The notes beneath the pieces were generated by a model. The model did not search any database and was not told the DNA's origin. It saw only the letters and a program-made list of their open reading frames with translations. From contig NZ_CP022420.1 of assembly GCF_002222635.1 (NCBI RefSeq), positions 62,001 to 126,000 on the forward strand: 64,000 nucleotides of DNA. Reading direction: 5' to 3'. A program made the translations under genes and the position numbers. Source of the stretch: Pseudosulfitobacter pseudonitzschiae (GTDB lineage Bacteria; Pseudomonadota; Alphaproteobacteria; Rhodobacterales; Rhodobacteraceae). Within the stretch, counting starts at the first letter, position 1; each line of letters starts with the position of its first letter. Below are positions 5,748 to 8,152 of the stretch, piece by piece.

Positions 5748-6407
5748 AGGCCCTGAGCGCAGTGTCAGCCGTCAGGCAAAGGCAGGAGGTTCTGTCGCAA
5801 ACTTTGGCGTGATGGTCTATCAGGCAGCGTGATTTGTCGATGAGGTCCGTCAGATGGTGTCGTTCAAAGGTGCTCAGTTTCCGCAGGACGTGATCCTGCA
5901 TGCCGTTTTCTTCTACGTGCGGTACGGTGTGTCATACCGTGATCTCGAAGAAATCCTGGCGGAGCGCGGCGTGGTGGTCGACCACGCTACTCTGAACTGT
6001 TGGGTGGTCAGATACGCCTCGGGTTTGGCCACGGTGGCGCAACGCAGGAAAGCCGCGACGGCTCTGTCGTGGTGCCTAGACGAGACCTATGTGAAGGTCC
6101 GCGGCGAGTGGTGTTACCTCTATCGTGCGGTCGATCGAAACGGCCAAACCCTTGACTTCATGCTCTCTGAGCATCGCGATGAGGCGGCGGCGCTGAGTTT
6201 TCTGGCGCAAACGATTTCGTCGAACGGGCTCCCCCGGGCCTGTGCGATCGACAAGAGCGGGGCGAACACTGCCGGCCTGAAGGGGATGAACGCCGCGCTT
6301 CGAAAGGTCGGTTCCGATCGCTGAATAAGGGTCTATCGTTTCAAATATCTCACGGATGTATTTGACAAGAAGTTTTTGAAGTACGGAGCTCCTTTTTTTT
6401 GGTCGAC

Positions 6408-7625
6408 CTACTGATGTGAAACCGGATTGGCCATTGGCGACCTCTGCTTCCATTTTGTGACGAAGCGGCGGTATACTTCCTCCGCGTGACCGACAGCCTC
6501 TCTTTCCCGATCGCGCACCGATTTGAGGCTGTAGTCGGCTGCTGACCCTTTCGTCCTGCCACCCCGTTTAGAAGGGTACCCTGCGGCCAACTCCAGTTTT
6601 CTCAGCTTCCAGTCCAGGAGAGCAGGACGGCTCCAGATGTACTCTTCGCCCTTCGACAGCATGTGCCAGATGACCACCGTCAGCTTACGCGCTGTCGCGA
6701 CTGCTGCGACTTGGTTCCCGCGCTTTTCTTTGATCCGTTGAAAGAAGGCTCGCAGCGGGCCAGGTGTTCGGGACACCGACCAGGCTGCCTCCACCAGCAT
6801 CGCTCGCGCATGTGATCGACCCTGCTTGGTGATGCGCCCGTGATAGGCAGGCTTGTCACCAGATTGCCGTACCCGGGGATTGAGGCCGAAATAGCTGACA
6901 AGCTTCTCTGGCGATGAAAACCGTCCGATATCGCCAACGGCAGCCAGGACACTCAATGCGACGATCATGTTGACGCCGGTGATAGTCATCAGTTGCTTCA
7001 CCCGCGGTTCCTGGAGTGCTGCCTGTGCAAGATCCTCATCGATCTGCTTGAGGTCGTGACCGAGCCGATCAAGTTCGCTGGCATGGCGGAGGATGACGCG
7101 CTGCTGATCTTCGGCAACAGGTAGCGCCTCAAGCCAGGCCCTTCCGCGCTTTGAGAACAGAGAGCCGGAAAAGGGCGGGATCAGATTGGCATGCAAAACC
7201 GAATGGATCCGGTTTTTGAGACGGGTCATCTGGGAGACCAGTTGCACCCGCTCAGCCACGACGCGACGAAGCCGTTCTGTTTCCTCATCTGGCATCCAAA
7301 CCTCAGGCAGAAACCCACTGGCGTGTAGTTTCGCCAGAACCGACGCGTCGATCTTGTCGGTCTTGACTTTGGCCCAGGCAATAGCGCGCACTAAAAGAGG
7401 GTTGGAGATGACAACCCGGTTCACATGGGGCGACAGCAGTCGCACGATGGCTTTTGTGTTGACCGTCGCTTCCAGAACGATCTCGTCCTCCACATTTAGC
7501 CGCTTTGCAAATTTCAGGATATGCTCGCGCTCAAGCTCCAGGCGACCGGCATCCCTGATCTTGCCGTTCTCCAGGATCGCCACTTGTGCGAAGGTACGAT
7601 GCACATCGAGGGCAATGATCTTCAT
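6408..7625 (-). CDS. IS110-family transposase (DEDD serine recombinase type)
   Basis: 405 residues. The N-terminal RuvC-like DEDD domain starts MKIIALDVHRTFAQVAILE (first Asp at residue 7) and has KTDKIDASVLAKL for later acidic positions. The C-terminal Transposase_20 domain has MTITGVNMIVALSVLAAVGDIGRF and FGLNPRVRQSG, including a helix-hairpin-helix-like region. These enzymes insert circular intermediates at sequence-specific sites with a bridge RNA. The gene appears intact. It starts at ATG 7625 after AAAGGAGCC. Confidence 0.92.
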   Translation of the reverse strand: MKIIALDVHRTFAQVAILENGKIRDAGRLELEREHILKFAKRLNVEDEIVLEATVNTKAIVRLLSPHVNRVVISNPLLVRAIAWAKVKTDKIDASVLAKLHASGFLPEVWMPDEETERLRRVVAERVQLVSQMTRLKNRIHSVLHANLIPPFSGSLFSKRGRAWLEALPVAEDQQRVILRHASELDRLGHDLKQIDEDLAQAALQEPRVKQLMTITGVNMIVALSVLAAVGDIGRFSSPEKLVSYFGLNPRVRQSGDKPAYHGRITKQGRSHARAMLVEAAWSVSRTPGPLRAFFQRIKEKRGNQVAAVATARKLTVVIWHMLSKGEEYIWSRPALLDWKLRKLELAAGYPSKRGGRTKGSAADYSLKSVRDREREAVGHAEEVYRRFVTKWKQRSPMANPVSHQ

Positions 7626-7662
7626 GATTGGCTCCTTTCAATGTTCAAAAACAAGGGAGCCA

Positions 7663-7830
7663 GCGGGCCACACGACAACTACGGATCCGCGCTCGCAGCG
7701 CAACCGGGCAAGTCGAAGGGGCGGCCAGATAACAACTCGAGCTCTCAGCTCATGAGATACTTCGGCCTGCCCGCCATTCGTGCTCCCAACACCCCAATCC
7801 CGGTGGGTCAATTCTAACCCACATCGAGGT
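7663..7830 (-). ncRNA. Putative IS110 bridge RNA
   Basis: This noncoding DNA lies upstream of the transposase, read leftward. A TATAAT (7836-7831) precedes a 5' stem-loop (GTGGGT/ACCCAC, 7822-7803). A first internal loop follows, with outer stem 7772-7764 / 7726-7719, inner hairpin GAGCU-GAG-AGCUC at 7751-7739, and loop strands at 7762-7753 and 7738-7727. A second loop has inner hairpin GCGCU-GCG-AGCGC at 7701-7689. The first loop's strands match the two insertion-site flanks, and the second loop's strands resemble the element's own termini. This is the target-loop/donor-loop layout of bridge RNAs. Exact ends are unknown. Confidence 0.7.
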
Positions 7831-8152
7831 ATTATAAACCTCCGATTGGGGTGCCGAGATCATTCATGCCGGATAACAACATCGTTGAGCAGGATCACCG
7901 AGGCGTAAAACGGCGGATCAGGCCGATGTTGGGCTTCAAGTCATTCAGATCAGCAACTGCAACTTTGGACGGTATAGAAACGGCACACATGATCAGGAAA
8001 GGAGAGTTGGGAAGTGGTTGCCCCTTCGAGATCTATGCCAGTCTTGCCGCGTGACGCGCAACCGAGGAAGCGTCTTTCTTGGCCACACTGAACTTTGCGA
8101 CGGAACCCCCTCTGTGACTAGCGCGTCGATCCAATCTATCCGGGTAGGGTCG

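What the first reader, a model, noticed from the sequence alone, without database searches (positions are those of the whole stretch)
7663..7880. IS110 bridge RNA whose target guides can be matched to its own insertion site
The leader of the IS110 transposase folds into a 5' stem-loop and two internal loops, each with a 13-nt inner hairpin of the same form (GAGCU-GAG-AGCUC and GCGCU-GCG-AGCGC). In the first loop, one strand (read leftward AAGTATCTCA, 7762-7753) matches the left flank AAATATCTCA (6343-6352) in 9 of 10 bases. The other strand carries ATAACAAC (7729-7736), identical to the right flank at 7873-7880. In the second loop, ACGGAT (7681-7686) equals the IS left terminus (6352-6357), and CTTGCCCGGTT resembles the right terminus CATGCCGGAT. 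The same loop topology holds for target and donor. Bridge RNAs are known for IS110 elements; this instance can be decoded from one locus.
Basis: partly seen in the sequence, partly recalled or inferred. Interest (0 to 1): 0.8.

Follow-up and report, generated by a model that had tools for sequence, protein, structure and literature searches.

The report
RNA-guided transposon inside another transposon
A small RNA-guided mobile element (IS110 family) has inserted into the catalytic-site codons of another transposase, and about 30 relatives show its guide RNA changing along with the insertion site; such guide RNAs are already known, but the guide order and the habit of hitting catalytic-site codons look like a new variant.

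Summary
On the minus strand, upstream of a 405-aa IS110 recombinase (6408-7625), lies a bridge-RNA (seekRNA) scaffold with a target loop and a donor loop. An uninterrupted IS6 gene fixes the element at 6353-7875. It splits an IS6-family transposase at KYL|NNIVE, just before the presumed catalytic Glu.

The case rests on relatives, not on one locus. In 39 RNA variants the scaffold is conserved (96.5% of cells paired) while target guides vary. In 32 distinct guide/flank pairs the 5' guide matches its own far flank at 207/320 positions (139 permuted; 185 permuted within target family; 0 of 20,000 reach it). Changed guides sit at changed targets: IS6, IS66, IS256 and IS3 transposases, beside the same DDE Glu motif. 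One 50%-identical pair has another target.

A sigma70-like promoter spans the predicted circle junction in 28/28 loci. Bridge RNAs are known; this is a new variant. Expression and transposition are untested.

The parts
6353..7875 (-). IS110-family element, 1523 bp, net insertion
   Evidence: Join of 6352 and 7876 aligns in register with the uninterrupted IS6 gene L095
6408..7625 (-). IS110 DEDD recombinase (405 aa); D7, E52, D90, D93, S255 at the expected catalytic places
   Evidence: Pfam PF01548, PF02371; NCBIfam NF033542; alignment to IS621/ISCro4; residue numbers
7784..7859 (-). 5' stem-loop of the predicted bridge RNA
   Evidence: Single-strand fold
7719..7772 (-). Target-binding loop with outer stem GGGC-A-GGCC / GGCC-GCCC
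   Evidence: Conserved stem in 39 relatives
7753..7762 (-). 5' target guide AAGTATCTCA (reads K-Y-L-N codons); matches the far flank 6343-6352
   Evidence: 9/10, 10/10 with one G-T wobble
7739..7751 (-). Inner hairpin of target loop, GAGCT-GAG-AGCTC
   Evidence: Conserved, one compensatory pair
7728..7736 (-). 3' target guide GTTGT + core TA + TC; GTTGT reads near flank 7876-7880, TATC reads donor core and donor end (place of the IS621 handshake guide)
   Evidence: Sequence; 3' guide matches near flank in relatives
7673..7715 (-). Donor-binding loop: outer stem CGAC/GTCG, inner hairpin 7689-7701, left donor guide TTGCCCGGTT 7702-7711, right donor guide ATCCGTA 7680-7686
   Evidence: Near-invariant in 39 relatives; ATCCG equals the far end of the element
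6343..6352 (+). Target left half AAATATCT plus core CA, inside the IS6-family transposase gene
7876..8054 (+). Target right half and rest of the IS6 gene (NNIVEQDHRGVKRRIRPMLGFKSF..; frame starts at 7875)
   Evidence: Translation; 97% to L095
6363..6368 (-). -35-like TTGTCA at the far end; pairs across the circle junction with the -10-like element, 17-nt spacer
   Evidence: Same position in 28 of 28 loci
7863..7868 (-). -10-like CATGAA at the near end
   Evidence: Same position in 28 of 28 loci

Best explanation
This is an IS110-family insertion sequence that picks its target with a bridge RNA (seekRNA), encoded upstream of the recombinase and in the same direction. In the circular form the two ends abut and form a promoter that drives the RNA and then tnp. 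In the target loop the 5' guide (AAGTATCTCA, codons K-Y-L-N) would pair with one strand of one half-site and the 3' guide (GTTGT-TA) with the other strand of the other half-site; the donor loop reads the abutted ends; the recombinase exchanges strands at a 2-bp core (target CA, donor TA). The target is the codons just before the presumed catalytic Glu of an IS6-family DDE transposase. Shown by computation: ends, interrupted gene, scaffold, guide-to-flank matching across relatives, change of target with change of guide, and a guide order reversed relative to IS621. Inferred from IS621 and ISEc21: RNA expression, binding by the protein, circle formation and catalysis.
For: Element ends from an uninterrupted site. 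Recombinase family. Conserved scaffold, variable guides. 32 guide/flank pairs: 207/320 against 139 permuted and 185 permuted within family, 0 of 20,000 reach it. Order: 5' guide to far flank 6.96/10 against 4.36 for the IS621 order; 3' guide to near flank 6.6/8 against 4.16; IS621 control gives the opposite order. Junction promoter in 28 of 28 loci. Four DDE transposase families interrupted at the matching position.
Against: No expression or transposition data. The loops of the window copy alone do not fold better than shuffles. Some cognate pairs are poor (L069 2/10, L044 3/10), and the IS256 subset alone is not significant (841 of 20,000). Relatedness of the sequences is not corrected for. 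The -10 of the window copy is weak.
Confidence: 0.92

Rival explanations
1. The target is recognised by the protein. The conserved leader is a regulatory RNA or attenuator of tnp, and guide/flank likeness reflects shared descent of composite IS6::IS110 elements.
For: Many near-identical copies carry the same IS6 flank (L031, L032, L051-L055, L078-L080). The target-loop hairpin followed by U-rich sequence scores as terminator-like.
Against: Relatives sit in four unrelated transposase families with correspondingly changed guides. Within-family permutation still favours cognate pairs, at synonymous codon positions. IS621, ISEc21 and IS1111 members use such RNAs experimentally (PMC11208160, PMC11187229).
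Confidence: 0.05
2. The element is really an IS1111-type element whose RNA moved upstream, so its guide order is simply that of its family.
For: Guide order is that of IS1111 seekRNAs (PMC11187229; L020-L023 of this genome, by eye). A small tree puts the clade on the side of the genome's IS1111-like elements rather than with IS621, weakly (82/74, long branches). Siddiquee et al. note an IS1111 relative with an upstream NCR, ISMtsp17.
Against: 405 aa lies outside the 330-350 aa of IS1111 transposases and inside the 395-455 aa of the subgroup with IS110. Only a short imperfect sub-terminal repeat, CGG(N)ATG, not 7-17 bp.
Confidence: 0.3
3. The guide order is the IS621 order and I have assigned the RNA to the wrong strand.
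For: The hairpins are nearly palindromic, so strand cannot be read from them alone.
Against: Read on the plus strand the core would lie at the 5' end of each guide, whereas in IS621 it lies at the 3' end; the minus strand fits. The junction promoter also points to the minus strand, as does synteny with tnp.
Confidence: 0.04

Closest known systems
IS621 / ISCro4 bridge RNA systems (IS110 group; PMC11208160, PMC11208158)
   Same: RNA upstream of tnp, target and donor loops each with two guides around an inner hairpin, 2-bp core with variable first base, junction promoter, guide layout in the RNA (core at the 3' side of each guide, handshake bases after it).
   Different: Order relative to the element is reversed: here the 5' guide reads the flank at the 3' side of tnp, in IS621 the flank beside the RNA. 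Core ends in A (CA/GA target, TA donor), not T. Protein 405 aa against 328 aa.
ISEc21 seekRNA (IS110 family; PMC11187229)
   Same: Upstream RNA; targets a conserved catalytic codon stretch of another transposase family (second D of DDE in IS3 elements); natural redirection seen in its relative ISMch6.
   Different: Guide order opposite to this element's; this clade hits the Glu motif, and in four families.
IS1111 seekRNA elements (ISEc11, ISPa11, ISKpn4; PMC11187229)
   Same: Guide order: match complementary to the top strand lies 5' of the other.
   Different: RNA downstream of tnp, sub-terminal repeats of 7-17 bp, proteins of 330-350 aa.

Membership tests
IS110 family, RNA-guided DEDD transposase | DEDD (RuvC-like) domain plus Transposase_20 domain with SG motif | tested here: met
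   PF01548 60.6 bits, PF02371 86.3 bits; NF033542 246.8 bits against cut-off 140; GLNPRVRQSG
IS110 family, RNA-guided DEDD transposase | Insertion without target duplication other than the core | tested here: met
   Uninterrupted site L095 aligns in register
IS110 family, RNA-guided DEDD transposase | Junction of abutted ends forms a promoter | tested here: met
   TTGTC(A/G/C)-N17-(C/T)ATG.. in 28 of 28 loci; sequence only
Bridge RNA / seekRNA | Conserved two-loop RNA next to tnp with variable guides | tested here: met
   39 variants, 96.5% of cells paired, guides variable
Bridge RNA / seekRNA | Guides covary with flanks | tested here: met
   207/320 against 139 and 185 permuted, 0 of 20,000; relatedness not corrected
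Bridge RNA / seekRNA | RNA expressed, bound by the recombinase, needed for transposition | not testable with these tools
   Needs an experiment
IS621-type IS110 group | 5' guide reads the flank beside the RNA | tested here: not met
   4.36/10 for this order against 6.96/10 for the reverse; control IS621 meets it
IS110 group by position | Longer non-coding region upstream of tnp | tested here: met
   250 bp upstream (7626-7875), 55 bp downstream (6353-6407)
IS1111 group | Non-coding RNA region downstream of tnp | tested here: not met
   Only 55 bp downstream of tnp in this copy
IS1111 group | Sub-terminal inverted repeats of 7-17 bp | tested here: not met
   Only CGG(N)ATG, 6 bp with an offset, by eye
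IS1111 group | Top-strand match 5' of bottom-strand match | tested here: met
   definition from PMC11187229
IS1111 group | Protein phylogeny | tested here: inconclusive
   26-row tree, 82/74 support, long branches

The most novel reading that the evidence does not exclude
A third architecture of bridge-RNA elements: RNA upstream as in IS110 but target and donor guide order reversed as in IS1111, in a clade whose guides have been re-aimed between IS6, IS66, IS256 and IS3 transposases, nearly always at the codons before the DDE catalytic Glu. It would be a specialised parasite of other insertion sequences whose re-targeting is eased because the 3' guide reads the shared Asn codons and only the 5' guide has to change.
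Probability: 0.65. Interest if true: 0.62.

Novelty: new variant of a known kind. Interest (0 to 1): 0.52.

Why it matters
Published rules tie guide order to family and RNA position (IS110: upstream, one order; IS1111: downstream, the other). This clade breaks the link, so order and position can be separated, and anyone decoding targets with the IS621 rule would look at the wrong flank. The clade is also a natural reprogramming series: one conserved scaffold with guides reading the same structural motif in four target families, useful to learn mismatch and wobble tolerance and to choose new recombinases.

Tried and rejected
Rfam: no match. Viral contigs: no relatives by protein or DNA pattern. 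A class-wide pattern scan of 385 genomes gave only two hits, one of them the window. The first hand-written structure string was out of register and was replaced. The IS621 guide order was tested and rejected. Near-flank translations by longest open frame picked wrong frames for several loci, so Pfam was run on far halves and two near halves. Far ends of L036, L037, L043, L067, L076/L096, L081, L082 and L088 were not found (truncation, other insertions or contig ends), so these are not in the guide test. The search for the phylogenetic place of the clade gave no firm answer. No structure prediction was run: solved relatives exist and it would not bear on the question.

Full report
What is there. 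The minus strand of 6353-7875 is an IS110-family element of 1523 bp. Its only gene (6408-7625) encodes a 405-aa protein with DEDD_Tnp_IS110 and Transposase_20 domains, far above the cut-off of NCBIfam's 'IS110 family RNA-guided transposase' (246.8 against 140 bits). The nearest solved relatives by sequence are ISCro4 (9t56) and IS621 (8wt6). D7, E52, D90, D93 and S255 stand where the DEDD and serine residues are expected.

Ends and target. The flanks are two parts of an IS6-family transposase gene..FKYL before 6352 and NNIVEQDHRGVKRRIRPMLGFKSFRSA.. after it. An uninterrupted relative in Sulfitobacter indolifex (L095, about 92% identical over the left part) aligns across the join in the same register. 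The insert is therefore 6353-7875 and only a core dinucleotide can be shared: CA at 6351-6352 on one side, TA at 7874-7875 on the other. Top-strand exchange 3' of the core, as described for IS621 (PMC11208158), would leave target core on one side and donor core on the other, as seen.

The RNA. On the minus strand, 7859-7784 is a 5' stem-loop, 7772-7719 a target loop and 7715-7673 a donor loop. Folding the loops alone is unexceptional, but in 39 distinct relatives the stems are kept (96.5% of cells paired; 36-45% when partners are slid), with one compensatory pair, while the guide columns vary. Most stem pairs never vary, so covariation support is modest.

Do guides match flanks? For 32 distinct pairs of 5' guide and far flank, 207 of 320 positions agree, against 139 when flanks are permuted and 185 when permuted only within the same target family; none of 20,000 permutations reaches the observed value. 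With wobble allowed the within-family result is weaker (4 of 20,000). The IS6 subset carries the signal (1 of 20,000); the IS256 subset alone does not (841 of 20,000). Relatedness is not corrected for, so these are not exact probabilities. Clear cases: L068 guide AAATATCTGA, flank AAATATCTGA; L033 AAGTATTTGA, flank AAATATTTGA; L083 CGTATGCAGA, flank CCGATGCAGA. Poor cases: L069 (2/10; the guide would code the related residues I-D-N with other codons) and L044 (3/10).

Target families. Halves of interrupted genes hit PF13610 (IS6), PF03050 (IS66: far half ends at model position 254-255, near half starts at 256), PF00872 (IS256: 334 and 335) and rve (IS3). In each the join lies just before an Asn-containing motif followed by Glu: KYL|NNIVEQDH (window), LPVD|NNWIEN (L069), IVYT|TNAIES (L072), PMQ|N (L083), PTD|NAFIEAFNG (L061). 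That this Glu is the third catalytic residue of each family rests on established knowledge, not on a test here. Two 50%-identical relatives, L059 and L060, also have guides that match their flanks (by eye) but sit at a site with no evident transposase gene, so the preference is not universal.

Guide order. In the IS621 control (L063) the 5' guide equals the flank beside the RNA. Here the 5' guide matches the reverse complement of the opposite flank (6.96/10, best register) and not the near flank in the IS621 sense (4.36); the 3' guide matches the near flank (6.6/8 against 4.16). The donor loop is reversed likewise: its 3' guide ATCCG equals the far end of the element. Siddiquee et al. (PMC11187229) report this order for IS1111 seekRNAs, whose RNA is downstream of tnp, and the other order for the IS110-type ISEc21. 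The IS1111-type copies L020-L023 of this genome agree with that by eye. The window's element thus combines the IS110 position with the IS1111 order.

Expression. Joining the ends gives TTGTC(A/G/C)-N17-(C/T)ATG.. in all 28 loci with both ends, best in L087 (TTGTCA-N17-TATGAT). This is the expected junction promoter of IS110 circles; the -10 of the window copy is weak.

Judgement. That this is a bridge-RNA element whose target loop specified its site: 0.92. That the order is reversed relative to IS621: about 0.9. Whether the combination is unreported is uncertain, because figures and supplements of the founding papers could not be read; no text found mentions it. Bridge RNAs themselves, natural redirection and IS110 insertion into transposase genes are known, which limits the interest.

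Noticed in passing
own genome C2:48846-49823 (L030/L062); L051-L055; L078-L080: The same IS110 is split near codon 65-79 in many hosts: several loci keep only the first 65-78 codons with TniA/TniB/TniQ-type genes beside them, while the second own-genome copy keeps only codons 79-405 next to a 92% similar IS6 flank. This suggests one Tni-type transposon insertion that spread.
   Followed up: partly
L063 (E. coli NN5) 1801-2049: The IS621 copy used as control carries a partial duplication that begins exactly at its own left target guide (ATCGGGCCT|TGTATTATCC), as if the bridge-RNA gene itself had served as a target.
   Followed up: no
window 6322-6324: The interrupted IS6 gene also has an in-frame stop shortly before the insertion, so it is broken twice.
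   Followed up: no
own genome (G000), 34 places: The genome holds 34 matches to the IS110 transposase domain, including multi-copy IS1111-type elements with 12-bp sub-terminal repeats (L020-L023) whose guides can be read from their flanks.
   Followed up: partly
L059, L060 (50% identical relatives): Their guides match a site with a GC-rich terminator-like palindrome and no evident transposase gene: a target class outside the DDE Glu motif.
   Followed up: no
L035, L036, L039, L041, L043: The 5' guide in these Microvirga elements is shifted by one base against the inner hairpin; their matches to the flank are below average.
   Followed up: no
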